Shown here: piece by piece, positions 11,212 to 59,629 of the stretch
How positions within the stretch are numbered: position 1 is the stretch's first letter
Layout of the letters: the number at the start of each line of letters is the position of its first letter
Source of the DNA: Melieria omissa
Taxonomy: Eukaryota; Arthropoda; Insecta; Diptera; Ulidiidae
Length of the DNA: 64,000 bases
NCBI GenBank assembly: GCA_963971225.1
Contig: OZ020269.1
Span: 34,059,264 to 34,123,263, forward strand
Direction: 5' to 3'
Made by a program: the position numbers and the translations under genes
The notes under the pieces: model-generated
Told to the model about the DNA's origin: nothing
What the model saw: only the letters and a program-made list of their open reading frames with translations
The model's database searches: none

Positions 11212-13830
11212 GTGTTAATTTCTTTACTCAAAGATAAACTGGGCGAAGGCTGTGATGAAAAAGTGCTTAAGCCAAAATTAGCCATTTTCAGTTGCCAAAT
11301 ACGGCAAAAGTGGCAGGAAAGTTCTCGGAGGTTGGAAGCGTTCACGAACATATTGCGCGAAACTGTTAATAGCTTATTGCAAATATGTGAAGTACAAGAA
11401 TCAAAAAAATTGTCATTGATGTGTAAATGGGGAAAGGATGGGAGTTCTGGAGACAATCGATTCAAACAAGCGTTTGGTGACGAGTTTAATTCAGATGAGT
11501 TCATGATCTTCATTGCATTCGTTCCTCTTAGGTGAGAATACATATGTACTTAGGTATATACGTAGTGTTCTCATTGTCAACAAATCTGTATGCTCCACTT
11601 TATTGCACAGATTAATTGATTCAACTTCAAAGTCCGTTGTGCGGATCAATGAAAAGTCATCCCCTTCATTATACTACCGAGCCACAAAGTTTCTGATTAC
11701 AAAAGAAAATCGAAACTGACTTATTGAAGAACATGAGCAAATAAAAATGAAGATTACGAACTTTAAGTGCAACGTATTTGATATTGGTGGAAAGGTGTAT
11801 GAAGTGGCATATCAAATGATGAATGTTGCAGTGTTAAATGTTTTGACGGCAACGAACGCGACAAGTAGTATTTGCCAAGCACCACCCACTGAAATGAATC
11901 AAATCGCAATCAGACCACCCACCGCAGATCATTATCAATACGGATTGTCACTGCTACACTGTTGGATTCGATTCTTCGAATGTGTGCTACACATTGCGTA
12001 CCGACGTTATTTTAAAACATGGCAGCTGCGCGAGCAGAATAAAGCAATTTTTTGGAGACCAAACATTAACCTTCACACTGTCACTATTAACATATGTTAA
12101 TATTTCAATTTTGATTTTGCTATAACTTTTTGGGTTTAAGTCCGATTTTCATGCGGCTTCGGCTCAGTGGCCAATTTGTCAACCTCTTTCTATATATGTA
12201 ATCAGAAAACTAAAAATTTAATTTTTTCCATCTTTTTTTTACAAATGAAAATTTTTACCCCTATTTTGGTTACATATTAACATATGTTAATATTTTTCTT
12301 CTCATCCGTTTTATAAAGACAACTTTCATTTTTTAAGCTAAGTTGGTAAGCAGAAACATAAAATGGACTGTTCTAAAGAGATTTTAGGTTCACATGTGGA
12401 AGGGGGGAAAAGAGATGAATGGGGTTTCAGCCCCTACAATGTGGGCGAATTTGTTGCTTTTTTTAAAGAAATGCCATAAAAAGTGCATTTTCAAATATAT
12501 TTTCATCAATTTTCGTATTTAAGACTTTTAGGTAATACTACATCACATATCTAAATTTGAACGAGATCGGCCAACTATATCATATAGCTGCCATAGAAAC
12601 GATCGCTCAAAAATGCGATTGGTACAAAAGGGCTAAATTGGTAACAATTGGTGCATTTTCAAATATATTTTCATCAAATTTCGTATTTAAGACTTTTAGG
12701 TAATACTACATCACATATCCAAATTTTAACGAGATCGGCCAACTATATCATATAGCTGCCATAGAAACGATCGCTCGAAAATGTGTTGCATTGCGATTTG
12801 TACAAAAGGGCTAAATTGGTAACAATTGGTGCATTTGAAAACTGATAGTTGGCCGATCTCGTTCAAATTTGGATATGTGATGTAGTATTACCTAAAAGTC
12901 TTAAATACGAAATTTGATGAAAATATATTTGAAAATGCACCAATTGTTACCAATTTAGCCCTTTTGTACCAATCGCATTTTTGAGCGATCGTTTCTATGG
13001 CAGCTATATGATATAGTTGGCCGATCTCGTTCAAATTTTGATATGTGATGTAGTATTACCTAAAAGTCTTAAATACGAAATTTGATGAAAATATATTTGA
13101 AAATGCACTTTTTATGGCATTTCTTTAAAAAAAGCAACAAATTCGCCCACATTGTAGGGGCTGAAACCCCATTCATCCCTTTTCCCCCTTCCACACGTAA
13201 ACCTAAAATCTTTTTAGCACAGTCCATTTTATGTTTTTGCTTATCAACTTAGCTTAAAAAATGAAAGTTGTCTTTATAAAACGGATGAGAAGAAAAATAT
13301 TAACATATGTTAATAGTGACGGTTTCCGTATATAAAAATTGGTGACAGTGTGAAGGTTAAATTCAAAAGCAGTTTGAAAAACGTTTGGGTTTGCGCATTG
13401 ACTTTGTTAAGTCTGGCTTCGGAACCACAAACGATGGCAATACGGCTCGAAGGTTCTTCGGAAATATCGAAATTGCGTCCGAAATAACCGGAGTAGACAA
13501 ATGTCTAATACAAAATTTTCAAACAATACTAAGCGTGCTGTCCTCTGGGCTTACTTACTTTTAAAGGATTGATTGATAAAGCTTTAATGCTGTACCTAAA
13601 TAAGTACAGTTGGTACTACATGCCAAGTAGTGTTCATAAGGTGTTGGTGCATGGAATAAATGTCATACATTTTTTTGATCCACCTATAGGTGAGAACTCT
13701 ATAAACCATTTCTTGTTTATAGTGATTAAGTTTGTATTTTTACTATAGGATGTTTTTCGGAAGAAGCGTTGGACGCAGCACACAAGATCATTAAAAGAAC
13801 GCGATTGGACCACACAAGAAAAATAATACG
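11212..13830 (+). pseudogene. Transib/RAG1-like transposase relic
   Basis: This is a DDE transposase of the Transib superfamily, the relatives of vertebrate RAG1. Segments appear in family order. 11212-11535 includes CKWGKDGSSG (the likely first catalytic Asp, in the KWG-DGSS block) and ends FVPLR before a GTGAGA donor. 11640-11716 includes SPSLYYRATKFLITKE. 11747-12060 includes LTATNATSSICQAPPTEMN and YGLSLLHCWIRFFECVLHIA. After a 1.3-kb insertion, 13361-13560 includes GFGTTNDGNTARRFFG. About 13586-13684 holds YSWYYMPSSVHKVLVHG, and after a further intron 13750-13828 holds CFSEEALDAAHK, the block that carries the last catalytic acid in relatives. In-frame stops and the insertion at 12070-13356 kill it. 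Element ends were not found. Assignment rests on recalled family motifs. Confidence 0.65.
12070..13356. mobile_element. Foldback element in TTAA target (piggyBac-type MITE)
   Basis: This is an almost fully palindromic, non-coding element about 1.29 kb long. It is flanked by TTAA on both sides (12066-12069 and 13357-13360), with termini CCTTCACACTGTCAC and the inverse. Arms of several hundred bases share blocks such as TTAACATATGTTAATA, CATTCATC next to CAGCCCCTACAATGTGGGCG, and GAGATCGGCCAACTATATCA. The TTAA target and CC start fit piggyBac-type mobilisation. It interrupts the Transib-like relic, so it is the younger insertion. Confidence 0.75.
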
Positions 13831-17359: not shown

Positions 17360-19490
17360 TTAATTTTGAAAAACAATTTTTTCTAGAGCAGTTATCTTTT
17401 CTAAAAATATTTTGTTTGGTTTTATAAGGTCTGGTTTGGATAATTGGTTAATCCATGTAAACGAATTTGATGCTTCTTCTAAATATTCACTTCCTAATTT
17501 TAGTTTTCTTATCATATAACCTGCTATGTATTCAAGCCCATCTTCATGAAGTTGATTAATATCTTTATCTTCAAATTCGAAGTGCTCAACATGCAGCTCA
17601 TCGACTTCGGATCCTCCGTCAAGTGCTTCGACATTTTCTAATATAGGTGTTTGATCTTCCCCTACATTGAGTGCAGCACTCAGCACTTCTGTATTTCTCG
17701 CTGAATGAGAATCAAGTCAACTTACAGATTAAATACTTGCGAAGCCTATATCGAAACTGGACCGCACTGGGGTGATCGCAAAGCCCTCCGGCGAAACGAA
17801 TGGAACTAAACAGATTCTCCACCCCGTCCTGGTTAATCCGACTTGTTACTAAATATTTGAATCCAAGTTTTTCCTCCACGTATTTCTGCAGGAGCACAAG
17901 AGACGTATTCGAGACAATAATTCCTTTTTGAAAGGGAGCAATAGTTGCTTTCCCCGGAATTATGGGCTGTGCCATTATTTCGGTCACTGCCTGCGTGCCA
18001 TGGTCACGGAAATTTTGGAATGGTTTGTGATATATATTATTAAAAGATGTTGTTAGTTTCGTATTTAGGGTATCGAACCAATTGTTCATCATTTCGATGA
18101 AGTCGGCACAGTCACAGGGATTGTATAAATCATTTCCATCTGAATAGCACCGGCGTATGGCATTGGCTACCGTGTTGGAAAATAACTGTGCTGCCAGCTT
18201 AACTTTTTGCCTATTAATATTCTTAACGTCTAAGTGTTCTTCTTTAAGCTTAAATACTATTGATACATCGTTTTTGGATGTATAATTCAAGACTTGGCAT
18301 AGTATCTTCACTGTAATTATTTTGTTCCTAAATATAAATCCGCTGTCGATGAAGTGGTTTCGAACCAATTTTATTAAATGCGGCGGATCCGCAAACACAA
18401 ACACAGAATCCGCAGGATTCGCAGGGTTCTTGAAAGATGTGTTATCTTAAAAAAAAATTAAGTACAAGAACAAATTATATCAAATAACCATTAAATAAAT
18501 GATCGTCTTACTTGTTGATATTTCAAGGTCTCTCCAAAGCCCCTGATTTCCAGGCCCCATATCGGAAACAATGGCGACTACAGTATATTTGGCCGAATAA
18601 AGTGCTTGAATAATTTGGGACAATAGTGTTTTTGACATTTTGCAGTCAAACCCGTAAAAAATTTGTTGCTTCCAAGAAGCCTTTAGTCCTTTTGCCATCA
18701 CGACTTGCACATAGTTAGCTGGCTTCCTCACTTGCTTTGTTAAAGGGTCATATTCATATACAGCAGACACCTTCATTTCATCGAAACTCAAAGTGCAAAG
18801 CCTTTCGTCATATTCTAGTTCGTTGCATGCCATGAGTTCGATTATGCTGTTGGATGCCTTCGTTAAATTTGACTTTGCGGACCCAATTATTGAGAGTAGC
18901 CTTGCATGGAATTGGGAATCCCTTTTTGTGCAGGTATCGGTATGCCCTTGGTCCAGCAGAGTGCAACGATAACTCTGACGCTATATCAACCCAGTCCCAA
19001 CAAACTCTTTGATTTTGATTTTTAAGTTTACGAATTTCCCTGCCGTCAAAATTTTGGAAATGCCGTCGTTTAGAGCATTTTGTTCTGCAATTCTCTGCTT
19101 CAAGTCTTGCACTTCTGCTTCCAATTTCTGCACTATTCGACCAAGTCGAATGCTTTCAAGCATGGCAGCACTCTCTACCACTTCTGGCCTAGAAAAAAGT
19201 TGTTGGTTCTTTTTCGGAAAACTCAATTACATGTTATGGGAAATCTTACTCAGTTTGAGTTTCGATGTTATTAAAGCTTGTTTGAAGAATAATGGGTTTG
19301 GGCCTTAAATAATACTGTTAAAAAAGTTACAAGTGGCTGATTAAGTGAGGTAACGTACTGTATTTCAAAACTGTCCATGCTGAAATGTATTGATTTTGCG
19401 TGGATTAAAAAAACTTGTACCAGTCTTGAAGCAAAAATTCTTCCTCGCAAAACTTGCAGCAGATGGATAGTGTTTTCTCGTCGTTTCGTC
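17360..19490 (-). pseudogene. P-element-like (THAP9-type) transposase relic 1
   Basis: P-type transposases are RNase-H-fold enzymes with a GTP-binding insertion. Reading the minus strand: a finger with CKFC and HAKSIH (about 19480-19380, broken by one base in a T run); an exon end IETQTE before GTAAG (about 19270); a coiled coil (IVQKLEAEVQDLKQRI, 19195-19040); a block with SAGPRAYRYLHKKGFPIP (about 18980-18870, frame broken); then LSFDEMKVS and VSDMGPGNQ with two catalytic Asp (18833-18480). After an intron whose acceptor precedes a DNTSFKNPANP-like exon start come FVFADPPHLIKLVRNHF and NQDGVENLFSSIR with the last acids (18404-17712), and a C-terminal domain EDGLEYIAGYMIRKLKLG (17686-17360). 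No THAP exon was found, so the 5' end is missing. Several frameshifts make it dead. Confidence 0.85.
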
Positions 19491-20029
19491 TAATCATTGC
19501 ATAAGTGTCTTGATTTCTATTGAAAGGCACGATTTTATTGCTAATCAATGAAATCCACAGCTATGAACCTATTTATCCTAAATTCCCAAAACTCACTCGC
19601 CTTAACTGCACTTTTTGTTCTGTTTTAGATGAATTAAAATAATAATTTTCCATGTATTCGTATTTATTGACAATATACTCACAAAACGGTGCAGAATAAG
19701 TTTGCGTACAAAACTAATAACGGGAACTTCCGGTTATGCTCTTTATTTTTTTTTGGAAAATTTGTATTCCATTGAACAGTAAACGGACTTGTAAGTTATT
19801 TGGAACCGTATATGTGCTTGAAATTTTATAGAAAGCAATAGAATTCAACAGAAAAATATTAAAAATGGATAAAGAATAATCTTACAAAAACTTTTCAAAA
19901 TTGACAAAAAATTTCATGAAATTAGGGAAACTTTTGGGAGAGCACATTCGTCATTTCAAAAAGCCATCTTAAATCTAAAAAAAAAACAGAAAATCTTGTT
20001 TGGTTACTACGATCTGACCATTTTCTTAA
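19491..20029. other. No gene seen
   Basis: AT-rich sequence upstream of P-like relic 1. The missing THAP exon was looked for on the minus strand and not found. There are no clear terminal repeats. Confidence 0.4.
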
Positions 20030-24437: not shown

Positions 24438-24513
24438 GTTATTCCCCAAGGTAAATTAACAAGGTATGCTACGTATGGAGCGACGTCTGTCAATGTCTCT
24501 CTTGGCACCCTTA

Positions 24514-25291
24514 TGGCCAAACTCCATAAATCGCGTTTCAGGCGTTCGGGGTTTGTCGGGTTATGGCGTTTCTCTCGTTATTCGCGTTGCAAATGGTCAA
24601 ACTCCATAAAGCGCGTTTCACGCGTCAGCTTCTTCTTCTTACGTCAGTTGATGCTAGTTTTTAATTGGCAAACTGCTGATTGATTTCGTTGTGAATTGTG
24701 AAAAACAACGAAATGAAATTGCTATACGACGTTATAGACTTTGTAGAATTTACTGATTTCATTTGAAACACATTAAATGCATATCGAACATTGCAAAAAA
24801 TAAAAAAAGATTCAGTTGAATTCAATTTGTAGCAATTTATTTCACAGGGGTGAGCAAAATTCGATCGACAACGAATAAGCTATCGAATTTCCAATACAGC
24901 GAAGACTAAGTTTCGTCTGTCAAAGAATTATGCTAATTTTTACGAATTTCTCCACATTCTATGTTAAAATATTGAATTTCAAATGTTTCTTAAATGTATT
25001 TAATAGCTTTCGTGTAAAATAAATGCATCCGACTTTTGCGATAACACAAGTTTGTTATCGGCATTACCATTCAACCACATAATGTATGACATCTTTAGGA
25101 GCTCTGTCAGCTGTTTGACGTCGTTTAACGAGAAACGCGAGAGAAAGTTGAAAATAGTTCAACTTTTGCCGCGTTTCGGGCGTAGTCATGGAGTTTGCTT
25201 CATACAAATACACTGATTCAACTTTTTCTCGAAACACGAGAAACGCCAAACACCACGATACGCCTGCAACGCGCTTTATGGAGTTTGGCCA
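24514..25291. mobile_element. PIF/Harbinger-type MITE
   Basis: Inverted ends start TGGCCAAACTCCATAAA and stay similar for about 60 bp, including GCGTTTCTC blocks. A 3-bp TTA stands directly outside each end (24511-24513 and 25292-25294), fitting the TWA target of Harbinger elements. The left end carries a second internal copy of the terminus at about 24595-24625. It is non-coding and nested in P-like element 2. Confidence 0.65.
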
Positions 25292-25948
25292 TTATTTGTG
25301 AACTGATGCCTTTTTTCGTAGGAAAAAGTACTAAATATCAGTTTGTAGCAGGGGTACCCTGTTAATTAGCGCCATCTACATTCTTGCGTAGTAATTAAGT
25401 ACCAAATGTCACTATCTCATAAGTTCACATGTTTACATATTTCCAAATGTCACTGTTGCACATGTTCACCTGTTTATAGTGTACTTCCAATGAATCAGAG
25501 TGTATAAAAGCGAGATTTGCGTTAATCTCGTTCACTTGCGCATTAGCGTCAATGATAACATGATGCGAAACTGAGAGCGCTCGACCACAATACATACTCA
25601 AAATCCGCACTAATACACCGATAACATCAGACCTTAGGGTTGATTTTGCCAAACATCAGACCCGGGGTATGCACAGAACCGTACTGTTGATTTCCCATAC
25701 AAGGGCCACGGCGAGGGTTGCGTTTACTTTCAATTTTTTAAGCATCGAAAAATCAATTGTTATTTCTTTGTAACTTTGTAATCTTTTGGAAGAAAAATGA
25801 TTAAAAAATTACAATATTTCCCGAAAACCAGTCAAAAGTATTTTAATACGTGTTTAACACATTTTTTATTCAGCTTTTATTGAATTTTATTCGTGAAATT
25901 TGAATGAAATGTGAATTTGATGAAAGCTCCATAGGAGTTTTTGCGATA

Positions 25949-26142
25949 ATTGCGACAGCCATATTTTGCTATCCCTTTTATACGGGTGCGCATATTATAT
26001 ATACATATATATATGTCATATATATATGTATATGTATATATAATATATGTATATATGATATGCGTATATATGTATATATAATATATGTATATATGATATG
26101 CGCACCCGTATAAAAGGGATAGCAAAATATGGCTGTCGCAAT
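25949..26142. mobile_element. Short hairpin MITE with AT core
   Basis: 47-bp perfect inverted arms (25949-25995 and 26096-26142) start ATTGCGACAGCCATATTTTG and end in GGGTGCGCATAT. TA is on both sides (25947-25948, 26143-26144). The core is a (TA)n/(TATG)n microsatellite that is itself nearly palindromic. It is non-coding, and the open frames across it are artefacts of the repeat. Confidence 0.75.
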
Positions 26143-26943
26143 TATAATATAATATAGATATATGCATATATATACATATGTTTTCTGATACGATTTTATA
26201 ATCGCGAAGTAGCAGACTATACTTATAAACATAAATTGTTTACTGTCCGACATTTATAAGTTTCGGCTACTTCTGGTTTTTGTGGTCCGTTTAGTCCGTG
26301 TTTTTTGCGAATTGGGAAACAAACGCATTAAATACATTTTTTTTATTTGTTCCTCTCTGAAATCATTGTTAAAAAAATTGTTAAAATGTTACAAAATCGT
26401 TAAAAAAAAATGGGTAACGCGCCGTATTGCCTCAGTGGTGGTTCGGAAAATGCAAATTAGTTATTATTAGTTTTTACATATGCACAAAGAAATAAGGATT
26501 TCTTTTTTACATCTTTATATCTCTGCATATTACAACTTTTCCCTAACATTTTCATTTAAATTAAATAATTTTGATCATTTCATATATTTTTTCCTTATTT
26601 TACACTGCTTCGTACAATAAGACTGCGAACATACTTTTTTACAAGTACATAAAAATTGCAACCCCGCGTTAGGAACAAATTTGCAAGTCAGCTGCTTGCT
26701 ACAATACGAATTGTTCCACAAAGAGAGAAAGCTGGCAGGGTTGACGATTTTCTTTTCAGCTCACACGGATTGTGTTCGTGTGACCAAAAAAAACGACAAA
26801 ATTTCGTCAATCCTCTCAGTTTCGCATCATGTTATCATTGATTAGCGTTCGAGGGACAACCCGGTAAGCTAAATGCGATACTTGGACAGGAAAACTGGCC
26901 GGTTCGCATTTGACTTAACTGTGGGGCCACTATTCCTCAGTGT

Positions 26944-27905
26944 CAGTGTTGCCGCTGTAAAATTTAAAAAAGTCGCAAAAAAAGTGTCATCAAGTGATCC
27001 AATTTGCTATGCCATGTATATAAATACATACTTTCATTATTTTACCTTTCGGAGCTCATTTTTTAAATAAATTTCTTAAGGAAATGATTTTCTGTGAAAA
27101 AACTGTTTTCCCCTTAAATTAATTGATGAAGGATATATTAAAAGGTTCCAATATGCATGTTTTGTATTTATTATGAATACATTTGCATTTCAAAGCATAT
27201 GCGTGATATACTTAATTATCCATTGGGAGCCATCAAAATTATTTTAGCAAATAACTTAGGCAATGCCACAAAAAAGCGCGTGAATTCAGATTAATTTTGT
27301 ACATTTTTGCGGGAAAACTTAGACATAATTAAAGAGTTGCAAGTAGTTTAACCTTCTACCTTTCCCTTGGGGTCTAATTCACCCCAGGCAGAATTAAAAA
27401 AACGGTTGAGCGGTTTTGTGCGCTTGTCTTGTGTGTTAATCGCTCTTTCAACCCAATAACAAATCGAGAAAAACACTTTTCGGGGCTTTCTCCTTTTCTT
27501 TTTTATGTGTTACCTTCCTCCATGTTTTGTCAGTAAATTATATAACCGTTTGGTTGGGGTCATCCTGACCCCAAAGGACAGCGAAAGCAATTTTGAGCAA
27601 GGGACAGGCACAAGGTTAAATGTTGCCAGAGGTGTAATTTTGAAGTACTTACGAGTTACCTTTAAAAAGTGAATACCAAAAGGAAGGCATATTATAAATA
27701 TTACGTACGCAAAAATAAAAAAATTAATTTTACGAAACAATTTTGAAAATTAATATATAAACTTTTTGATAAAAGAAAGGGGCAAAAGTCGCATGGTTTT
27801 GAAGAAAAGTGTCAAAATGAGCATATTTTTAAAAAGTCGGTGTCAGGTATCATCGGTCTCCAAAAAGGGTCAATTTGACACTATAGTCGCACAACGGCAA
27901 CACTG
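26944..27905. mobile_element. hAT-type MITE
   Basis: Inverted ends CAGTGTTGCCGCTGT and ACAACGGCAACACTG (one mismatch) are flanked by the perfect 8-bp duplication CTCAGTGT (26936-26943 and 27906-27913). It has no transposase frame. It holds a TTAA-flanked MITE (27352-27615). It sits inside P-like element 2. Confidence 0.85.
27352..27615. mobile_element. piggyBac-type MITE nested in hAT MITE
   Basis: TTAA on both sides (27348-27351, 27616-27619) flanks inverted ends CCTTCTACCTTTCCCTTG and CAAGGGACAGGCACAAGG (few mismatches). Subterminal GGGGTC...GACCCC hairpins at about 27368-27390 and 27555-27575 recall piggyBac-family ends. It is non-coding. Confidence 0.7.
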
Positions 27906-28327
27906 CTCAGTGTGGTTGGACAGGAAAACTGGCCGCCGCTACTGGGAATAGTCGGTTCCAAAGGTTGCCACTCGTCGCTAATTACCGTATATTTTCAGGA
28001 ATTGTTGTTTATATTAAATAAAATAAATCCGGTCCAGTACCGCTACAAGTTTTGATATTTTTTGGTACAACAACCTTTTTTGTACATTTTAGAATAGCAT
28101 TGAAATAAACATATTTGAAGCGTAATATAATTAATAAATGCAAAACATATGCACATATATACCTATTTGTTTTTTTATTGTTTTTTTGTTCATAAACTTC
28201 ATTGAATAATATTATACTTTTCATTGCACCTTTATCATCCTTGCCTTGAAATCCCTGCTGTTTGAACTTCATTTAAAAATTATTACGCTTTGAGTCCTGT
28301 TTGTTTTTTAAAATAAATAAAAATAAA

Positions 28328-30413
28328 ATGCCGAAAACCAGTTGCGCTTTTTGCCATACCACCTACGAAGGGAAGGTGTGCATGTTTCGTGTTCCTGCGG
28401 ACGAAGAGGTGGCCAGGCAATGGAATATGGTATGTGGTGGACGTCTCAAACAATACTCGAAATTGTGCGAAAAACATTTCAAATTAGCCGATTTCAAAGC
28501 GTTTGAGACTGAAGCCATATACCATTCCTTCATTGCATTTGCCTCAACCAAGTCAAGGGCAACAGGTTACATCGTGAGTTATATAAATTTTAATATCAAA
28601 TTAGTAGTGATTAAAGATAAAGCTTGCTGTTTACAGAGCAAATCAAAGGATTCTAACAGGTTCGGGTGTTTTGGAAAAGCAAAATAACTATAACGACAAC
28701 AACAACAACGACAATTTTTCCACAAATAAGGGAATCGAAACAGAACCGTAAGTTCAAATTGGTCAAGTTCTTATCGGTATAGCATTCGCCTCACCTTGGA
28801 GGAATTCTTTTCGCAGCTTACCTCAAATTTTCGGACTTGTGAAAGCCTCGCAAACCCAAAAAACGTTTCTTATTACGTGCAGCCTTTGTGATGATGAGTT
28901 TACCATTTCGGAATGGTATTCCTTTGCTTTGCATATGAAAACTAGCCACAGTTGCATGCTTGATGGGTGTGTGAAATCGGTTTTTGGTTAGCACATGGTA
29001 ATTAATGTAAAACAAATTTGTGTTTTAGGAGTCTTTGCCAAAACACGGGCAAGAAATTGGTTGAAAGCGCAACTCAAACTATGTAAGCAAATTAATACTA
29101 CTTGCATATATGATTTGATTTTATCAAGTAAAGGTTCACAGGAACGTGGCGGTTGTTGCAGATGGTATGGCTTTAGAAAATATCGAATTAAAGCAAAGCA
29201 TTGGAACCCTCAGGCAGCAAACAACCATGATCCATGATTGGTTCGATCTCCTCAATTCTCGGCTGACGTCTCCAAATTTAAGTGTGTTTAAAAAACCCTT
29301 TGGAATGGCCTTAGAGGAGCAGAAAGAAATGTTAAGCCGAATGTCAAAGCTTATGGCAAGTCCTCTGCTGCCTAATAAGACGGCACTCGTGCCATTTCAG
29401 AAGGGCATTTTAATCACAAACAAATCACTGGAACTTTTATACAACGAACTTCAGGAAAAATACAACATAAAATTCATCGTGACGAATAGATTGAACCAAG
29501 ATTTAGTGGAGCACCTCTTTGGAACAATCAGAAGTGTGGGCGGCCTGAACGATCACCCGAGTCCACTCCAGTTCAAATTTTGGTTTAGGAAATATTTATT
29601 TGGTATATAAAAATCTTGTTTCATACTATATTACATTGTCCGACATAACTTCGCACACATGGTAAAAGCCTATATGTATATCAATCATTATACTAGTTTG
29701 AAATTTTGTTATCGTGCAAACTAGTGTTATTTATATTCGCTCTTAACACGTGAACAGTCGGAACCAGTGAAGTTATTAGCGAACAATTGTTTAAATAAAT
29801 CGTTTTTAATTACAGCGCGAAATACCGAAATTTTAAGTTCAAATTATTATATTATATTAAGTATAAATTATCATGGTTCAAATTAACAGCAAATCAACTT
29901 CAGGAAACTAACTCGGCAAATGTTGTGCAACCATCTTTTCAAGACTCTTTTCAAAATTCAACGTTAGTAGACAATGACGAAAACGAACTTAACATAGACT
30001 TGACAAACGAATTTGACAGTTTCCACGAGGACGGATTGGAATATTTGGCGGGATATATTATTTGAAAATTAAATTTAAATAGCGTTCAAGCAATTCAAAG
30101 TGGGACTTGGACATGGGTGAACCAAGTATCCCAGGGTGGGCTTCTCAAGCCATCTAGTATATTTTTAAACAAAATTTAACAATTAGAAAAAATTTTTGTG
30201 GAACTAAATGGAGGCAAAATTCTATGTATTAAAAATTTATGTGATGATCTCTGCGATTCTTCAAAATTTGTTGGACTTTCTGATGATGTAAAAAAACTCT
30301 TTTTTAAATGCCGAATGTTTTTTAGAATAAGACATTTAAACAAGAATTTTAAAAAAACTCAACTAAAAAATAAATTTTTCAATAATAAAAAAATGTCAAA
30401 AACTGTTTTATGA
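28328..30413 (+). pseudogene. P-like transposase relic 2 (THAP plus C-terminus, core deleted)
   Basis: A THAP DNA-binding domain starts at 28328: SCAFC, RVPADEEVARQW, and LCEKHF supply the C2CH zinc ligands. It breaks at a GTGAG near 28574. A finger C-x2-C-x14-H-x4-H (CSLCDDEFTI...LHMKTSH) reads at about 28880-28955. The catalytic Asp blocks expected next are absent. Coding resumes at about 29146 with IHDWFDLLNSRL, VPFQKGILITNKSLELLY and NQDLVEHLFGTIRSVGGLND, then a C-terminal domain (about 29890-30413) with HEDGLEYLAGYI and stops in it. So it keeps DNA binding and tail but lost the front half of the RNase H fold. Drosophila KP elements have a comparable layout and encode repressors. Any such role here is inference, and the present stops argue against a full product. 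Confidence 0.85.
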
Positions 30414-30896
30414 AAAATTACCTTCTATTTTTATTTCTATTTGAATGCATTGAATTAAAAATATAAACTTTTTGCTACACAAAATCAATTGTTAGCACAT
30501 GACATTTTTGTCTTAGGAACAAATACTGAATGTTGCAACCAAACATTTGCTACTAAGTGAAAGTAACTCTGATTTTGACATAACCCGCACTCTTATTTTG
30601 AAGTCTCTCCATACGTAGCATACCTTGTTGATTTACCTTGGTTATTCCCATAGTCAAATAATAAAGTCATCCCGATAGGTGACGTCTATTTGTTTACGTA
30701 CTCTTATTTTGATAGCTGCCATTTATGTCCTCTCTACATTCTCACATGAATGAAATATGTCTGTCAAATTTTAACCTTTTTATTCATAATATAAAATATT
30801 CCAAAAAATATTTGGTTGTTTAAAGGAAGTTCATAAAAGATTTAAATATTTAAAAACTTTAACTTTAACTGAAGTGCAGTGCGGTACAAATAAAAA

Positions 30897-32632
30897 ATGC
30901 CAGCAACGTGCTGCATTTGTAAAAAAACATGGGACCAAAAAGTTTCAATGTTTTGTGTACCCAGTGAAAAGGATGAACGCTGCAAATGGGAAGCAGCAGT
31001 TGCAAAATCCCTGAGTGCCACCTCTAGAGTGTGTGCCAAGCACTTCTCAGAGGAGCACATTAAAGATGATCCACTACGAAAACGCAAGCGTTTACAACCA
31101 AACGCTGTACCCGCAAAAAAATTATCGACAATAGAAGTGTATGTGCAGAGTTTACAATTTTTTCAATTGCAATAAATATTCATGTATATGCATATATGTT
31201 AATATACCTAATATTAGGCCCGAAAACTTTGAAAACCCCTGGAATTGTGGTTCCATACAAGTAACTAAGGATAGAAAGACATATTCAATAAAATGTACAT
31301 TTTGTGACGAAACATTTTTACTATGGTCTTGGACAAAATTTATTAATCACGTTAAAGAAAAACACGACATTATAAATGAATTTGAGTAAGTTATAGCTAC
31401 TTACATCATTGCAATACATTTGTATGAGCTGAATATTTTAATAATATAGAATGCAATATACAAATCAGGCAAGTGCACAGAAATCTTATGTTGATTGCGA
31501 AACTCAGACTGAGTGAGTATAGTAATAATTGATTTTACAAATTGTATTATGTTACATATAACCAATTTTGTAGCCCTGAAATAATTCAACACACAACACT
31601 AATCGACATTAAGCAATTGCACAACAAGAAATTAAATTCCATAGAGTCCTTAAATCTTTCGATGCAAAACAAAATTCGCTGTATGGAATATTTCAACAAT
31701 GGCATCAACAAAATTTTTTCGGAAAACCAACTCAAAAAATTAAAAACTGGGAAGAATATTCATTGGAAGTGGGAGGATATTGCCACGGCAATTGCCCTTC
31801 ACGCTGCTGGGCCTAGAGCTTATAGGCATTTACTACTTAAGGGCTTCCCACTGCCGTCCACTACCACATTGAACAACTGGGTTCGAACTGTGTCGCTTGA
31901 AGAAGGGCTGCTACAAAATGTGATAAATGTTATGAAAAATAACCAAATGACTCCCGAACAAAAGCTATGCATTTTGTGCTTTGATGAGATGAAAGTTTCC
32001 TCATGTTACGAACTCGACACGTTAACTCAGGCAGTGCGAAAGCCCAGCAAGAACGTGCAAGTAGCTATGGTACGAGGTCTAAAAGCCTCATGGAAACAGC
32101 CAGTTTTTTACGCTTTCGATTGTAAACTTACAAAGGCTATTCTAGAAGAAATTATTTCCAAATTATACGTCGTGGGTTTCAAAATTCTTGGGGTTGTATG
32201 CGACATGGGTTCGAATAATCAAGCTCTGTGGAGAGAATTGGAGATTTCCGTCGGTAAGACTTTTATTTAAACTAGGTTGAATTGTCTCTTACCTTTTAAC
32301 TTAACTTACTTTTAACTTAACTCTAAGATAAAACGTGGTTCACAAATCCTGTTAACGTTGAAGAAAAAGTGTTCGTGTTTGCCGATGTTCCTCACCTCCT
32401 CAAACTCATAAGAAACCACTTTATTGATAACGGCTTTCTGTTTGAAAACAAAATTATAACGGTACAAACTCTTAAGCAAGTCATGAACTATACGTCCTCG
32501 TCAGACGTATCAATAGTATATAAGTTGTCTGAAGAACATTTGAACGTCCGAGGAGCGAGCCGTCAGAAAGTGAACCTAGAAAATGCACACAATTTGACTA
32601 AAAATAAAAAACTTTTTAAAACTGTTTCGTAA
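30897..32632 (+). pseudogene. P-like transposase relic 3 (C-terminus lost)
   Basis: A five-exon reading is clear. Exon 1 (from 30897) is a THAP domain: CCICKKTW, VSMFCVPSEKDERCKW, VCAKHFSEEHI and NAVP. Exon 2 (31218-31387) holds a finger with CTFC and HVKEKH. Exon 3 (31450-31512) ends CETQTE. Exon 4 (about 31574-32253) has a coiled coil, AAGPRAYRHLLLKGFPLP, LCFDEMKVS and VCDMGSNNQ (two catalytic Asp). A 74-bp intron (32254-32327) separates exon 5 (VFVFADVPHLLKLIRNHFID, SRQKVN), which fades into unrelated sequence after 32582. The final catalytic block and C-terminal domain are missing, so it cannot be active. The coding frame before that point looks nearly undamaged, and introns sit where relic 1 has them. 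Confidence 0.88.
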
Positions 32633-33297
32633 AACCCATTCGTATTATTTAAATAATTTCTTTACATGATACGTATCCATATCTATGTTAATGTCCCTAC
32701 AAGGAATGCCTAACCGAAACTCCAGAAAAAAGTTCAAAATTTGTCTAAAAACTAACACATGCATAAAAATTTCCCAAATCTCACTAACACATTCAAATCT
32801 GCATTTCACATGTTGGGATTTTTTCCAGTAAGTGGGAATGAAAGAATATATTTGCATTAGTACCTTCCATATTCTCTGTATGAAAGAGTGAGATAACGAT
32901 ATAAACGTGGCGTGCCACTTGATTTTATGCCCAAAATGTCGTAGTTCACGCGAAGACTTCAACTGGTACGTCAGGCAAGCGTCCGCTGACGAATTTATTT
33001 TTGTGGAACGTTTTGAAGGTAATAAAATATTTACTTGACTAAAAAATAACATTAAATTGAATTATTATTTCATGATTGTTCTATATAGATCTTTTCCGAA
33101 GCATGGATATGGATAATTCAACAAAAGAACCCTGGAGGCTAAAACCAAAGGCGCCGGAAGAAATGTTGTGTTTTTTTTGTGTGTCTTTCTCGCTTTTCCT
33201 CTTTGTATTTCTTTTTTATGATAGCCAAATACATTTTTTTAAACTAATCGTCCAAATAGTTTTAATGTATATTTACGTAATGACTATCAGGTACATC

Positions 33298-33470
33298 TAA
33301 CCGACAAACCGGTTAGACCTATCTGGTAGACATACCGAATCGTACGTTATGTCTACCAGATAGGTATGACCGGTTTGTCGGTTAGACGTAACTGACTGTT
33401 ACGGTAGACATACCGATTCATACGTTATGCCTACCAGATAGGTCTGACCGGTTTGTCGGTAAGACGTAAC
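33298..33470. repeat. Palindrome plus direct repeats
   Basis: A palindrome of about 38-bp arms (33298-33335 and 33348-33386; core arm text CTATCTGGTAGACATA, outer text CTAACCGACAAACCGG) is followed by further copies of the same arm: TAGACGTAACTGA at about 33383 and 33461, and ACCAGATAGGT at about 33356 and 33431. It lies inside P-like element 3 between its broken gene and the inner element. It is non-coding, and the origin is unknown to me. Confidence 0.7.
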
Positions 33471-33997
33471 TGAATGGTACATGCGAGACTCCATGTGAGT
33501 AAGCGAGGCAGCTGTACGTTTGCCAAGGTTTCAGAGTGCATGCGTTAGAAGGTGATATCAAATCACACGGACACAAAATCAAGTCACACGTAAACAAAAG
33601 GACTAGTCAGATTTTTCACACTGCTAGAACAAATCTGACTAGAAATATAACCGATATGTTGGTTATGTATACCGGTTATATAACTAGTCATATGACCGGT
33701 AGTCTCCTTGTAGGGGTGTTTTCTGTATACACATACAGTACACAACATATACACTCCATTGCTTGTAGCTATTTGTATACACATTTGAAAAAGGGTTAAA
33801 AGCAAAATAAATGTCGAATGAGTTGAATTCAAAATACTTTGAGAGAACAGTTGTCAAAATAAGAGTACGAGGCATGATACAAAAATATACAGGTAGATTC
33901 AATCGAGCAAATTTAAAAGTCGGTTGCTTTTTTGGCAAATAAAAATAAAATTTTAAGGGTGCAAAAAAAAGTAAAGGAACAAACGTTTTCGTGAAAA

Positions 33998-36648
33998 ATG
34001 AGCTGCATAAAAAAGAATTGTGTTAACAGCAGATATAACAAAAAAAACGTAAAATTTTTCGCGGTACCGGTAAACAAATTTATGCGTAAGAAGTGGCTTG
34101 TAGCGTGCAGTATTCAGGAGCAAGACCTACCAAAGGCGCCGCTGGTATGCTGTGTACATTTCCTGCCAACAGACATCATAAAAAAAATAAAAATCATCGA
34201 CTTATTCCAAGTGCCGTACCCTCAATGGACAATGGCGCGAAGAGGTATTAAAAATGCTTTACTTGTAAGGTTGTCGTTATATGTATGCAATTTGTAGTTC
34301 TTATGACTGTTGTGACGAAAGACAGTGGATTGCAACGACACCGCGCAACAATGCGATATGGACACGCAAGAGTCAGTTTCAACAGTTCCAAAGCTCTTAG
34401 TTTCCAGAAGTACTCAAACAGAGTAAGTACTTTTAGTATAATTTAAGAGTTCTATGTAGGTAACTTTTGGCATGTTAAAAATGTTCTAATATCCTAGCTT
34501 ATCATCGAGCTACTGTGAGCTTCAGCGGAAACTGAAGAACGCAGAAGAGCTTGTAAAAGAGTTGGTGCAGAAGCTGGAGACCGTAACTGCCAGCAATGTA
34601 CTGACAGAAAACCAACAGGAGCTGCTCACACATCCTCGAAAAACGCCGAGGTACACAATGGATGATATATCTTCATCTATTGGGATATATGCAGCTGGAC
34701 CGCGCTGCTATAAGCTATTACGTAGAAAACATTTCCCGTTGCCTTCTCCATCAACGCTCAGAAGATGGGCATCAAAATTGAATGTAGACCCCGGTCTTCA
34801 GACGCACGCACTTTCATTCATGGAAAGCCATGAACTCAACGTTGACGACAAGTTGTGCGTGCTGTCGTTTGATGAGATGAAGTGCCGGGAAGAATGGGCA
34901 TTTGATAGAATCGGCGATACCATAGTTTCACCTAAGACACAGGTGCAGGTTGCTATGGTGCGCGGCTTAAAGGGGAGGTGGAAGCAACCTATATACTACG
35001 ACTACGACACGAAAATGTCGGCGGAAGTCCTGATGCCAATAATCGCGCGTCTGTATGGCATTGGCTTCACAGTAGTGGCAGTCGTATGTGATTTAGGTGT
35101 TGAAAACCAATCCTTTTTCCGAAGAATGGGTGTTGATGTAAACAAAACCAATTTCCAACATCCGGCGGACGCCAGCAAACCTATTTTTGTGTTTAGTGAT
35201 GTTCCACATCTTATTAAACTACTGAGAAACCATTTTGTAGACAATGGGTTTCTATTTAATGGGACTGTACTGAGCAAGTACGTAATTGAAGAACTGCTGT
35301 CTCTATGCAAAAGCGACCTGACCTGACTATAACCAACTCCCTTAATATCGATATGCTGAACGTCAGAGGACCAGGTACCAAATACTTTATATTTTTATTT
35401 TTACAAAGCATCATCATTTTCAATAGGTCGGCAAAAGGTTAAATTTGCAACCAAACTATTTTCACATACATGTGCCAGCGCACTTAGAAGATGCGCGCAG
35501 CTTGGCCTGTGTAGCGATGTAGAACGATTTGTGAAATGCGCGGACTTGTTCAAGATAATCAACGACTGGTTTGATGTGTTTAATACACAAACCGTTGAGA
35601 AAGACGTCAGGCCCTTAAGTAAAGCTTTTGGGTTAGCATTGGAGGAGCAGATAGAAGCGATTCAACTCATGAACGGAGTTGTTTTAAACCTGTTCCCGGT
35701 GCGTGCCAGCGGTGCCTTTTTACCGTTCCAAAGAGGCGTCTTAAGCAACAACAATGCTCTACCACTTTTATATGACCACTTGTAAACCCAATATGGGGAA
35801 CATTTCATTATGACGAACAAGCTTAATCAGGACTGCCTGGAAAATTTCTTTAGTGCGATTCGGGCAAAAAGTGGGCTCCATGACCATCCATCACCCATGG
35901 AGTTCAAGTACAGGATCCGATCCTACATGCTTGGTATATACTTATTAAATAACTATGTAAATAACTTGTTAACCAAACTTCAACATAGGTCGAAACGAGA
36001 ATGTACTTAGTACTGAAGCAAACGTACATACTACTGATACGGACTTGCTTGGTATTGGTTTGGTGGACCCAGCAGAGACGGTAATTTCGCAGGAAGCCTT
36101 TAAAGAGCTGCTTTCAGATTTTCCAATTGACTCTGAAGAATGTCAAGTACATATTAAACGTAACTTCTAATAACGTATGCAAAAAGTAATCTTTATAATA
36201 ATTTCAGATTCCCATCGATATGTGTGAGGAATTCTCGCACATAAGCGATTTGGAATACGATGGGCTGGAGAACTTTGGAGGTTATTTAATTCACAAACTC
36301 AATTTAGCGTCATATGGGAGTCGGACTGGGCTTAACCATCAAAATCATTCATTTACATATGTAGATTTAGTTTCAGAAGGTGGTTTGATAAAACCAAATT
36401 TAGAGTTTATGGGTATTTTAGAAAAGTTAAATCAAATTTTTGTGCATACGAATGGCGATTCTCTGACAACCACTCCAAATTACATGTTAAACCTTATGTC
36501 TAAAGCATCACATATTAATGTAAGATCAGATATCAAAACACGTTTTTATGTAGGGAGAACTTATTTCAGAATTCGTTTACTGAACCGCGACCGCAATGAA
36601 AAGAAGCAAAAAAATTCAAGGAAAAAAATTAAAAAAATTACAACATAA
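33998..36648 (+). pseudogene. P-like transposase relic 4 (almost complete)
   Basis: The gene begins 125 bp inside the element's left end. Exon 1 is a THAP domain (SCIKKNCVNSRYNK, FFAVPVNKFMRKKW, LVCCVHF). A short exon (34322-34421) ends STQTE before GTAAGT. There is no extra finger here, unlike the other copies. Exon 3 (from about 34498) has a coiled coil (ELQRKLKNAEELVKEL), AAGPRCYKLLRRKHFPLP, LSFDEMKCR and VVCDLGVENQ (catalytic Asp pair) and FVFSDVPHLIKLLRNHF. A tandem CCTGA duplication at about 35319-35328 shifts the frame. After an intron ending near 35425 follow RQKVKF, NDWFDVFNTQ, VLSNNNALPLLYDHL, a TAA at 35783-35785, and NQDCLENFFSAIR with the last acids. Two introns later the C-terminal domain (YDGLENFGGYLIHKL) ends at 36648. 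Just one frameshift and one stop are evident. Confidence 0.9.
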
Positions 36649-36650
36649 TA

Positions 36651-37363
36651 CAGTGCGTTAAGAAATGATAGCACCATTGACCTTTTGTATCATAACTTCC
36701 ATGCTAATGATCGAAGAATGGAAAAACTTGGTCGAAATATCCATTGCATATATCTAAATAATGTCCATTAACCATTCTTTTCTACTTTTCGATGCGTGCT
36801 CTGCTGCGTTATCCTGCATGAACGTAAAATCCACGGCGGGAAACTTGTCGATATATGATGAAGATGTTCCTGAAGGAGCTCTTGATACCGCGCAGAGTTC
36901 AAGCGTGTATCAGTAAATGCCAGAGATGCTTTTCCATGAGCTTAAAGGCTGCCCAAACCATTAATGATCCACCACTGATTTCGCGGTTTGTTAGACCTTC
37001 GTCTTTAACATAAGAGCGCTTATGACGGCTTTTTCCCCTTGTTCCAGTTCCGCCTTTCTGCCCAGTGCGTTCACTTCTTCTTCACTTCTTTAGTTTTTAC
37101 AATAGAAGTTTGACAAAAAAGTCAAAGGCCGTGCAAAAATAAAATATTGTAAGTGGTGCTATCATTTCTTAACGCTTGTGAAAGTGACTTTTTTATGTAA
37201 ATTCATATTTTGTCCTTTGTATCAAACATTTCGGAATTTTGGGTGCGGGACATTATTTAAATATATGCAATGGATATTTCGACCAAGTTTTTCCATTCTT
37301 CGATCATTAGCATGGAAGTTATGATACAAAAGATCAATGGTGCTATCATTTCTGAACGCAGTG
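36651..37363 (-). mobile_element. Tc1-like deletion derivative
   Basis: Ends start CAGTGCGTTAAGAAATGATA, with an inverted partner of about 115 bp at the right end, and TA on both sides (36649-36650, 37364-37365). The minus strand keeps two transposase pieces fused by deletion: LTNREIS-type text from the DNA-binding part, then GGSLMVWAAF, FTDTRLNSARYQELLQEHL and FTFMQDNAAEHASKSRKEW with the second catalytic Asp. An extra internal copy of the terminus lies at 37154-37174. It is dead but potentially mobilisable in trans. It is nested in P-like element 4. Confidence 0.85.
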
Positions 37364-37692
37364 TATATGTCTTCACACAATAATAAAAAATAGTTTTAAT
37401 TCGTTGCATCTTTAATTATCTTTTTTATAAATGAAAGATTCTAATACCTAAACTGAATGATATACTACATAAACTAATTGCTGTGAAATTGCAGCTCTGT
37501 AGCAAAAATGAAAATAGTAGTACAAAATTTGTAAACAAATATTTTTTTCCAATTGTCAATTTTATTTTTATCTGTCGCATTGAATCTACCTGTATATTTT
37601 TGTATCATAGTACGAGGCATAAAATGTCACTATCGGGATGACTTTATTATTTGACCAGAGACAATTGTCTCTGATTTGACTATGGTTATTCC

Positions 37693-38107
37693 TTGTTGTC
37701 ATTTGTGTTTTCAGTTTTAAAAAATAAACATCACCGAACCGCACTCTACCCGCCTGTTTTATTCCGCTTCGCCGACGGCAAAATTTGTTCGTTAAAATTA
37801 CAATCACATTGATTTGTTGGCAGCATCAAGTAAGCAGGAAGATGACGAGGAGCTTAAGGAAGAACGACAATTACACCAATTAAATGTGCCACACATATGT
37901 TGCAACTTGCAAGAATTTATTTGCGGCAAATATGACCACAACAGTCCATTGCGCTCGCGAAGTTATTAAAACATTAAAGACGCTTAATTTCTAGGAGGAA
38001 TTTGTGTGTTAAATGCACCAAATATTTCTAGACTACGTTTAAGTTCTCTTTTCAACCTTTTTATTTAACCCTTTGAATATGTTTATACACTAAAAAGACT
38101 GAATTTA
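37693..38107. other. No gene seen
   Basis: The sequence resumes host-like DNA beyond the GTTATTCC duplication. No supported coding region, RNA gene or repeat end was found. Confidence 0.4.
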
Positions 38108-49613: not shown

Positions 49614-50715
49614 CAGTGTACCAATAAAGTCTACGTACAGCACCTGATTCAGAACTAATTATTAAAAAACACTAAATAATTGTAGAAATTTTGTAAAAAG
49701 GTCGATGCAGATCTATTTATTAAGCACCAAAAATAAGCTCAGAGTTCCTTCAATCGAATCAAAAAAAAGTGCACCCGGAAACTGTGCGAAAAGCCGTGAT
49801 TGATGCCGGTTTCAAGTCTCGCACTCCTCGCCGAAAGCCATTTGTAAATTTAATCAATCGCAAAAAGCGTTTGGACTTTGCTCGTGAGTACCAAAATGCA
49901 TCTCCTGAGTTCTGGCGCAATGTTATATTCTCCGATGAGTCCAAATACAACATCTTTGGCTCTGATGGCAAGCTCAGGGTCTGGAGAAAGACGGGAGAAG
50001 CTTACAATCCAAAGCATACGATCAAGACTGTAAAGCACGGCGGCGGCGGAGTGATGGTATGGGGTTACATGGCTGCCAGCGGCGTTGGAAACTTAGAAAT
50101 AATTGAAGGAGTCATGGATCATCGCGCATACATTGATATTCTCAAGAGAAATTTGAAGCCAAATGCTCCACATCTACTAAAAACACCACCGCAGAGTCCA
50201 GACCTCAATCCTATTGAGCACATGTGGAATATGCTTGAAAAAAAGATAAGGACTAATCACATTTCGTCAGAACCTCAGCTACAACAGGTTCTTCAGGAGG
50301 AATGGGCGAAAATCGACGCAAACTATACACAAAAACTTGTAAAGTCGATGGCAGATCGCCTCAAGGCCGTCATTAAAAACAAGGGGTATCCAACTAAATA
50401 CTAATAAAACATTTTTTAGGTTTTCATAATTCGTAGTTGATTAATTTCGTAAGTGTACGAAGACAAATGCACAGACATACCTTAATTGTACGAAGACTTT
50501 ACTGGCAGTAAATAAGCGATTTTTTTTTGTTTTTGGCTAAAAACTTTTAAACTACTTAATGAAATATATTACAATAGTTTTTGTTGTTATATTAAAAATA
50601 AATGCTTAATAAATTGATCTGCATCGACCTTTTTACAAAATTCCTACAATTATTTAGTGTTTTTTAATAATTAGTTCTGAACCAGGTGCTGTACGAAGAC
50701 TTTATTGGTACACTG
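49614..50715 (+). mobile_element. Tc1-like element, complete ends, defective gene
   Basis: Long inverted ends start CAGTGTACCAATAAAGTCTA (right end inverse, few mismatches, at least 100 bp including GGTCGATGCAGATC). TA duplications stand at 49612-49613 and 50716-50717. The ends are well preserved, suggesting a fairly recent insertion. It encodes the truncated transposase frame at 49769-50404. Confidence 0.9.
49769..50404 (+). pseudogene. Tc1 transposase, N-terminus and second catalytic Asp deleted
   Basis: An open frame of 211 residues against about 340 for intact Tc1 enzymes. It begins inside the DNA-binding region (HPETVRKAVIDAGF), keeps VIFSDESKYNIFG with the first catalytic Asp, GGGGVMVWGYMAASG, and TPPQSPDLNPIEHMW with the last acid. 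Between NLKPNA and PHLLKTPPQ about 27 residues are missing, precisely the block that holds the QDN second catalytic Asp in relatives. The frame is otherwise unbroken. It cannot cut DNA by itself. The missing N-terminal third also removes most of the paired-type DNA-binding domain. Confidence 0.85.
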
Positions 50716-59424: not shown

Positions 59425-59629
59425 CATAGTATAATAATAAAGTAGTCTAACCTGAACTCTCCCCTCTTTTGAGTACAAATTTTTTGAAATTTCTTTCACA
59501 ATATTTCATTTTGATGCACAAAATATTTTCAAAACTCTGTTCATAAAATTTTCTGCCAATTTTTGTAAACAAAATAGAAATACATTAGAAATACTCTCTC
59601 AGGTTAGACTACTTTATTATTATACTATG
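59425..59629. mobile_element. Mini-P (P-type MITE)
   Basis: 31-bp perfect inverted ends start CATAGTATAATAATAAAGTA (59425-59455 and 59599-59629), with an 8-bp duplication GGTCGAAC (59417-59424, 59630-59637). The terminus agrees with that of P-like element 3 over CATAGT-AATAATAAAGT. It is non-coding. The length of the repeat and duplication fit the P superfamily better than hAT. Confidence 0.75.

What the first reader, a model, noticed from the sequence alone, without database searches (positions are those of the whole stretch)
24438..37692. Two different P-like elements in tandem sharing one 8-bp target, present three times
GTTATTCC stands at 24438-24445, 30641-30648 and 37685-37692. Between the first two lies an element with 31-bp inverted ends starting CAAGGTAAAT; between the last two lies one starting CATAGTCAAA. 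Both encode THAP-type transposases of different families. The simplest history is that one P-like element inserted and a second later used one copy of its target duplication. P elements in Drosophila are known to form double insertions at one target, but two distinct families side by side with exactly shared duplications would be a clear fossil of that behaviour.
Basis: partly seen in the sequence, partly recalled or inferred. Interest (0 to 1): 0.9.

Follow-up and report, generated by a model that had tools for sequence, protein, structure and literature searches.

The report
Stacked P-like transposons sharing one target
Two different P-element relatives sit side by side because the second one landed exactly on the footprint left by the first, and similar stacks occur at a few other places in the same genome, so it looks like a habit of these elements rather than a single accident.

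Summary
GTTATTCC flanks two P-superfamily elements, e1 (24447-30640) and e2 (30649-37684); other copies in the same assembly confirm both sets of ends.

One correction matters. The e1 family makes 9-bp target duplications (7 of 10 other paired copies exact), the e2 family 8-bp ones (12 of 20 exact). The e1 duplication here is therefore GTTATTCCC, and its right copy ends on the first base of e2. This orders the events without another genome: e2 first, then e1 into the junction of e2's left duplication and e2's first base.

Both intervals hold nested elements, one of them a third P-like element inside e2; both e1 and e2 copies lack part of the catalytic core.

It is not unique. At C2:105.65 Mb three P-like elements are separated and flanked by four copies of one 9-mer. 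A 9-bp MITE family, nB, is stacked on itself at one locus and on an M59 element with the window's geometry at another. Three further nB junctions are half-verified.

Double insertion of P itself is known. Stacks of different families and a 9-bp P-superfamily family had no counterpart in my searches. Active targeting of ends is possible but unproven.

The parts
24438..24446 (.). Left copy of the 9-bp duplication of e1 (GTTATTCCC); its first 8 bp are also the left copy of the 8-bp duplication of e2
24447..30640 (+). e1: P-superfamily element of the CAAGGTAWATTAAC family, interval 6194 bp, about 3.1 kb without the three nested elements
   Evidence: ends confirmed by 30 genomic matches; lengths
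24514..25291 (.). MITE nested in e1, TTA duplicated on both sides, TIR TGGCCAAACTCCATAA; high copy (40 long matches scored)
25550..26840 (.). n1: non-autonomous element nested in e1, TIR CAATGATAACATGATG, 8-bp duplication ATTAGCGT
26944..27905 (.). hAT-like element nested in e1 (name by TIR, recalled), 8-bp duplication CTCAGTGT
28277..30065 (+). Transposase remnants of e1: THAP, zinc-finger segment, RNase-H C part, P-element C domain; RNase-H N part missing
30566..30601 (+). Two copies of ACTCTTATTTTGA (first with one mismatch), candidate transposase-binding motif, positions 63 and 40 from the right end of e1
30641..30649 (.). Right copy of the e1 duplication GTTATTCCC; base 30649 is at the same time the first base of e2
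30649..37684 (+). e2: P-superfamily element of the CATAGTCAAATAATAAAGTC family, interval 7036 bp, about 3.27 kb of its own
   Evidence: ends confirmed by 93 genomic matches; lengths
30700..30712 (+). ACTCTTATTTTGA at position 52 of e2; inverted partner at 33854-33866
30894..32632 (+). Transposase remnants of e2: THAP, zinc-finger segment, RNase-H N, start of the GTP-binding domain
33873..37609 (+). n3: third P-like element, nested near the right end of e2, 8-bp duplication GTACGAGG, encodes THAP and P-type transposase pieces
36648..37366 (.). MITE with 119-nt inverted ends (97%) nested in n3
37649..37680 (.). 18-bp perfect palindrome between two copies of ATTTGAC inside the right terminal repeat of e2; looks like an excision footprint
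37685..37692 (.). Right copy of the 8-bp duplication of e2, followed by T, not C

Best explanation
Sequential double insertion. e2 (8-bp family) inserted into GTTATTCC. Later e1, from a P-superfamily family that staggers its target by 9 bp, inserted into the 9-mer made of e2's left 8-bp duplication and the first base (C) of e2, duplicating GTTATTCCC. Shown: both families, their duplication lengths, the junction letters, and similar stacks at other loci. Inferred with good odds: the order. Inferred more weakly: that duplications beside P-like ends are favoured landing sites for the 9-bp families e1 and nB. The likeliest reason is that a site once good for P-type integration stays good and is now present twice; attraction of the incoming transposase to P-like ends is possible but unproven.
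For: 9-bp duplications: 7 of 10 other paired e1 copies exact, 2 at 8 of 9, 1 at 7 of 9; the 8-bp frame matches only 1-5 of 8. 8-bp duplications: 12 of 20 e2 copies exact, 4 at 7 of 8. Ninth bases are C, C, T at the three sites: e2 first needs no mutation, e1 first needs a chance C and a later C-to-T. Same geometry at C3:30.36 Mb, nB on M59, with G after the third copy. Stacks with outer copies seen: C2:105.65 Mb, four CTTTAGGGG; C2:43.50 Mb, four GGTTCTCCC. nB|CATAGT junctions: 5, control 0, gaps only 8 or 9 though 7-10 were allowed. Expected outward-facing end pairs 7-10 bp apart among the four families, uniform model: 0.0007; at least 4 seen.
Against: 3 of 20 e2 copies show no duplication and 1 matches 5 of 8. 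M59 copies have 8 bp at three places and 9 at three, so length is not strict in every family. No empty site could be examined. e1 and e2 cluster regionally, so the uniform chance model is too low. No second e1|e2 junction. I searched junctions only for chosen family pairs.
Confidence: 0.85

Rival explanations
1. e1 inserted first and e2 later used the right-hand copy of its duplication; the ninth base of the third copy then changed from C to T.
For: Needs only one C-to-T change at 37693; such changes are common in old copies, and 3 of 10 other e1 pairs have mismatched duplications.
Against: Also needs the host's ninth base to have been C by chance, equal to the first base of e2. Rough odds 40-200 to 1 against, under assumed substitution probabilities of 0.1 to 0.02. 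The nB/M59 stack independently shows the 9-bp element second.
Confidence: 0.06
2. The two targets coincide by chance in a region where P-like elements are dense; no re-use is favoured.
For: e1 and e2 places cluster: 8 of 24 e1 copies lie within 100 kb of an e2 end, rotation mean 0.74. With very many P-like elements and 50-fold regional enrichment, two exact coincidences among e1 copies would not be surprising (bottom rows).
Against: Several stacks exist, including two with three elements; gaps are 8 or 9 only; family sizes found are modest (30, 93, 149, 322 ends).
Confidence: 0.05
3. The pair moved as a block (macrotransposition) or arose by recombination between two alleles, each with one insertion at the same site.
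For: Macrotransposition of P pairs has been proposed for an Anopheles MITE with unlike ends (PMC1562414, section read).
Against: After a block move the inner 8-mer would differ from the outer ones; here they agree. The exact e1|e2 junction is unique in the assembly. Recombination would need crossover within 8-9 bp.
Confidence: 0.02
4. Assembly artefact joining repeats.
For: All partners are repeats; no reads were available.
Against: The differing ninth bases and the nested elements form one consistent history, and stacks with verified outer copies exist at three other loci.
Confidence: 0.02

Closest known systems
Double (tandem) insertion of the P element in Drosophila melanogaster (McGurk and Barbash 2018; not held; seen through passages of reviews PMC12628747 and PMC9659126)
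   Same: Second insertion into a duplication left by the first; junction of duplication length.
   Different: There the same element stacks on itself; here different families do, with different duplication lengths that reveal the order.
1360 and Galileo, P-superfamily families with 7-bp duplications (PMC3276498 and PMC4168063, passages)
   Same: P-superfamily families whose duplication length departs from 8 bp.
   Different: They are shorter (7, a few Galileo 8); the e1 and nB families have 9.
AgaP2-P12MITE of Anopheles gambiae (PMC1562414, passages and one section)
   Same: Ends from two different P subfamilies; its authors propose two neighbouring P copies moving as one.
   Different: There the pair is inferred from a product; here pairs and triples of different families are seen in place. 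No chimeric product was sought here.
Tandem hAT MITE insertions at Atlantic cod inversion breakpoints (PMC12368964, abstract and one section)
   Same: Several related elements accumulated at one place.
   Different: hAT superfamily in a fish; shared duplications were not the evidence in the section I read.

Membership tests
P superfamily: e1 family | THAP domain plus P-type RNase-H, GTP-binding and P-element C domains in the transposase | tested here: met
   Copy L040: THAP, RNaseH_N, GBD, RNaseH_C and P_element_C all above Pfam cut-offs; two pieces match P transposase 6p5a at 2.7e-59 and 1.7e-62. The window copy lacks RNaseH_N.
P superfamily: e1 family | Acidic catalytic residues D230, D303, E531 (named) | tested here: met
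   Aligned motifs FDEMK, VSDMG and NQDLVEH in L040; the match of motifs to residue numbers is my reading. The copy is split over several frames and was not mended.
P superfamily: e1 family | Terminal inverted repeats beginning CA | tested here: met
   CAAGGTAWATTAAC..., 30 ends within 3 mismatches, one of them TAAGG. That CA is the rule for the superfamily is recalled.
8-bp P-element clade: e1 family | 8-bp target duplication | tested here: not met
   9 bp in 7 of 10 paired copies exactly, none best at 8. So e1 is filed in the superfamily, which also holds 7-bp families, not in the 8-bp clade.
P superfamily: e2 family | P-type transposase, CA ends, 8-bp duplication | tested here: met
   THAP, RNaseH_N; protein relatives named P transposase (one named hit of 25 plus insect hypothetical proteins); 12 of 20 exact 8-bp duplications.
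P superfamily: nB and M59 MITEs | Relation to a P transposase-encoding element | tested here: inconclusive
   Ends resemble those of n3 and e2 and duplications are 8 or 9 bp, but neither encodes protein, and mobilisation was not tested.
Double insertion at a target duplication | Elements separated and flanked by copies of one duplication | tested here: met
   Window, C2:105.65 Mb, C2:43.50 Mb, C3:30.36 Mb.
Double insertion at a target duplication | Empty or single-insertion allele in a relative | not testable with these tools
   The tool holds no relatives of this genome.

The most novel reading that the evidence does not exclude
A class of P-superfamily elements with a 9-bp stagger (e1, nB) is drawn to the duplication/terminal-repeat junctions of other P-superfamily elements, by recognising P-like ends or transposase bound there, and so builds mixed arrays of different families. 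The motif ACTCTTATTTTGA shared by e1 and e2, at positions 40 and 52 from the ends, about where transposase sites lie in the Drosophila P element, would be a candidate handle.
Probability: 0.3. Interest if true: 0.82.

Novelty: new variant of a known kind. Interest (0 to 1): 0.63.

Why it matters
The 8/9-bp difference makes the order of insertions readable from a single genome, which normally needs a relative with the empty site. Mixed stacks seen in place are the precursor that was proposed, but not shown, for MITEs with ends from two P subfamilies. A 9-bp stagger extends the range of target spacing that I found described for this superfamily (7 and 8 bp) and offers a comparison for the solved P transpososome. 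If junctions of foreign P-like ends prove to be preferred targets, then target choice in P-type transposition depends on resident elements, which can be tested on plasmids.

Tried and rejected
Rejected: e1 with an 8-bp duplication plus one slipped C, or with a 7-bp duplication and ends CCAAGG/CCTTGG. Both fitted the window alone; other copies decided for 9 bp. Rejected: en bloc movement of the pair (and the identical inner and outer 8-mers).

Weakened: that e1 copies lie beside P-like elements more than e2 copies do. An element with CA ends and an 8- or 9-bp duplication lies at, around or within 100 bp of 6 of 24 e1 copies (five from the scan, the window added by hand) and of 0 of 20 e2 copies. 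But e2 flanks were only 450 bp, 13 of the 24 e1 copies had one flank only, and of the 6 only three (C2:105.65 Mb, E, L035) have the neighbour wholly within 450 bp, so the contrast is not significant; that the neighbour of E is P-like is not shown. Weakened: the loose e1|CATRRT pattern gave 8 hits: one is the triple stack; in 3 others no flanked element was found within 1500, 411 and about 200 bp; 4 were not checked. Suggestive only: the shared 13-mer of e1 and e2; 0.0011 of 40,000 random 100-bp pairs share one, but many end pairs were compared.

Led nowhere: three viral-contig scans, 0 hits; protein search with a host ORF, none; protein search with e2, best 56% identity, origin not resolved; no terminal repeats for the P-like gene at 17363-19500.

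Choices: one e1 pair (L047, 4 of 9) was dropped as spurious and 9 of 20 fetched e1 loci gave no partner end. The 24 e1 and 60 e2 places were collapsed by hand. The place lists of nB and M59 are truncated by the tool. Two of the 12 exact e2 copies (L079, L091) have the same flanks. The e1|e1 and e2|e2 patterns had fixed gaps of 9 and 8 bp with up to 3 mismatches; the reversed e2|e2 control gave 1 hit per strand. M59|M59 was exact with gap 7-10. Pairs such as M59|e2 and pairs of B3-type elements were not searched.
Full report
OBSERVATION. GTTATTCC is at 24438, 30641 and 37685, plus a copy at 22867 with no element beside it. Between the first two lies e1, between the last two e2. e1 has 42-nt ends at 93%; e2 has 30 identical nt at each end after a 25-bp insertion in its right end is set aside. 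A scan for 8-bp duplications abutting inverted ends gave 13 pairs in the window, against 2 in one and 0 in nine simulated sequences; several of the 13 are sub-pairs of one inverted repeat at 12.3-13.3 kb.

ANATOMY. e1 (24447-30640) holds a high-copy MITE with TTA duplications (24514-25291), n1 (25550-26840, ATTAGCGT) and a hAT-like element (26944-27905, CTCAGTGT). Its own part encodes a THAP domain, a zinc-finger segment, the RNase-H C part and the P-element C domain, but not the RNase-H N part. e2 (30649-37684) encodes a THAP domain, RNase-H N and the start of the GTP-binding domain (the last below its Pfam cut-off); no C-terminal half was found. The second THAP transposase in the e2 interval belongs to n3 (33873-37609), a third P-like element with the 8-bp duplication GTACGAGG; a piece of it matches the solved D. 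melanogaster P transposase at 7.5e-67. With n3 left out, the two subterminal regions of e2 align as an inverted repeat across its insertion point, an independent check of its borders.

DUPLICATION LENGTHS. The window alone allowed 7, 8 plus one base, or 9 for e1. The assembly (490 Mb, 164 contigs) settled it. The e1 end pattern occurs 30 times within 3 mismatches, control 0. Of 20 fetched loci, 11 gave a candidate pair of ends and 9 none. One pair was dropped as spurious (4 of 9). Of the other 10, seven have exact 9-bp duplications, two match 8 of 9 and one 7 of 9; the 8-bp frame matches only 1-5 of 8. The e2 end pattern occurs 93 times, control 0. Of 20 copies with both ends, 12 have exact 8-bp duplications (two share flanks), 4 match 7 of 8, 1 matches 5 of 8 and 3 have none. 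The e1 family belongs to the P superfamily: copy L040 encodes five P-type Pfam domains and two of its pieces match P transposase 6p5a at 2.7e-59 and 1.7e-62.

ORDER. The letters are GTTATTCCC, e1, GTTATTCC, e2 beginning with C, GTTATTCC, T. If e2 came first with 8 bp and e1 followed with 9 bp, nothing has to mutate. If e1 came first, the host's ninth base had to be C and to change later to T. Rough odds are 40-200 to 1 for e2 first, under assumed substitution probabilities of 0.1 to 0.02.

RECURRENCE. (a) C2:105645912 to about 105651100: an e1 copy of 3673 bp, a 419-bp MITE (nB, CATGATACAATTATAA) and a 1071-bp element (B3, CATAGTGAAATAAATA, with a THAP domain) are separated and flanked by four copies of CTTTAGGGG; the array lies 38 bp from the right end of an M59-type element with the duplication CGTATAAC. 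(b) C2:43499640-43500590: three nB copies, the middle one only 75 bp, with four copies of GGTTCTCCC. (c) C3:30364740-30365280: GGTCACACC, nB, GGTCACAC, M59 beginning with C, GGTCACAC, G: the window's geometry and order. (d) nB|CATAGT junctions: 5 genome-wide, control 0, gaps 8 or 9 although 7-10 were allowed; two are (a) and (c). For the other three (L143, L144, L145) I saw the middle duplication and the start of a P-like partner, not all outer copies. (e) Not found: e2|e2 (reversed control 1 per strand), e1|e1, M59|M59, a second exact e1|e2 junction. Family sizes within 3 mismatches: nB 149 ends, M59 322 ends. A uniform model expects 0.0007 outward-facing end pairs 7-10 bp apart among these four families; the window, (a), (b) and (c) make at least 4.

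INSERTION INTO ENDS. P-like elements also enter each other's terminal regions: an e1 copy at e2 position 89-97 (C3:32823276); an e2 MITE in an e1 terminal repeat (L056, CGTATGGA); an M59-type element in an n3-type terminal repeat, at the same spot in two loci (L056, L143); nB in an M59 terminal repeat (L142, AGGTTAGAC); n3 near the right end of e2 in the window. These were met while following chosen loci, not in a survey. e1 and e2 places also cluster regionally: 4 of 24 e1 copies are within 10 kb of an e2 end (rotation mean 0.09) and 8 of 24 within 100 kb (0.74), 0 of 2000 rotations as high in either case. So part of this is regional preference; local hopping and preference for promoters and replication origins are known for P (PMC7776569, passages).

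MECHANISM. Shown: sequential insertion at one target by different families. Inferred: why. Under plain site re-use each duplication copy stays as good a target as the first; D. melanogaster P has high site fidelity (178 of 1,226 natural insertions coincide exactly with induced ones; PMC3276498, passages). Against that as the whole story, each stack seen has a 9-bp partner (e1 or nB), while the larger M59 family gave no stack with itself; but I looked only for chosen pairs, and pairs such as M59|e2 were not searched. Under targeting, the 9-bp transposase would recognise P-like ends. ACTCTTATTTTGA is shared by the right end of e1 (position 40; a second copy at 63 in most family copies) and both ends of e2 (52 and 49). 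In the P element the binding sites lie 9 and 21 bp inside the 31-bp repeats, so near 41 and 53. This is suggestive only.

NOVELTY. Double insertion of the same P element is known (McGurk and Barbash 2018, not held; described in passages of PMC12628747 and PMC9659126). Searches for tandem or double P insertions, for shared duplications and for 9-bp duplications in the P superfamily listed no paper that I recognised, from titles, abstracts and the passages read, as reporting mixed-family P stacks or a 9-bp P family. The library lacks most subscription papers. I recall, without a source here, that the singed-weak allele of D. melanogaster holds two P elements at one site.

Noticed in passing
17363-19500 (minus strand): A P-type transposase gene with long open stretches (RNase-H N, GTP-binding, RNase-H C) for which no flanking terminal repeats were found: a truncated copy or possibly an immobile gene.
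   Followed up: partly
37649-37680: An 18-bp perfect palindrome, CAGAGACAATTGTCTCTG, between two copies of ATTTGAC inside the right terminal repeat of e2; resembles a transposon excision footprint.
   Followed up: partly
59425-59629: M59: a 205-bp MITE with perfect CATAGTATAATAATAA ends and duplication GGTCGAAC; 322 ends of this family in the assembly. Duplications of family copies are 8 bp in three places and 9 bp in three.
   Followed up: yes
12275-13315: A long inverted repeat (about 1 kb, 92%) with internal 168-bp tandem repeats.
   Followed up: no
33287-33480: Two 78-bp tandem copies (91%) with further inverted similarity inside the non-coding part of e2.
   Followed up: no
G000 C2:85477934-85485454 and C3:52359465-52409234 (positions): nB ends recur at steps of about 1.8 kb and of about 9-11 kb, as if units carrying nB had been amplified in tandem.
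   Followed up: no
L141 (C3:30364988) and L144 (C2:67714521): The same 8-mer GGTCACAC separates nB from two different partners at two loci: a preferred target sequence or a shared origin.
   Followed up: partly
L079 and L091 (C3:55868836 and C2:63332919): Two e2-family copies of different length have the same flanking sequence on both sides.
   Followed up: no
366-1166 and 49724-50401: Open frames that read like Tc1/mariner transposases (my reading of the translations).
   Followed up: no
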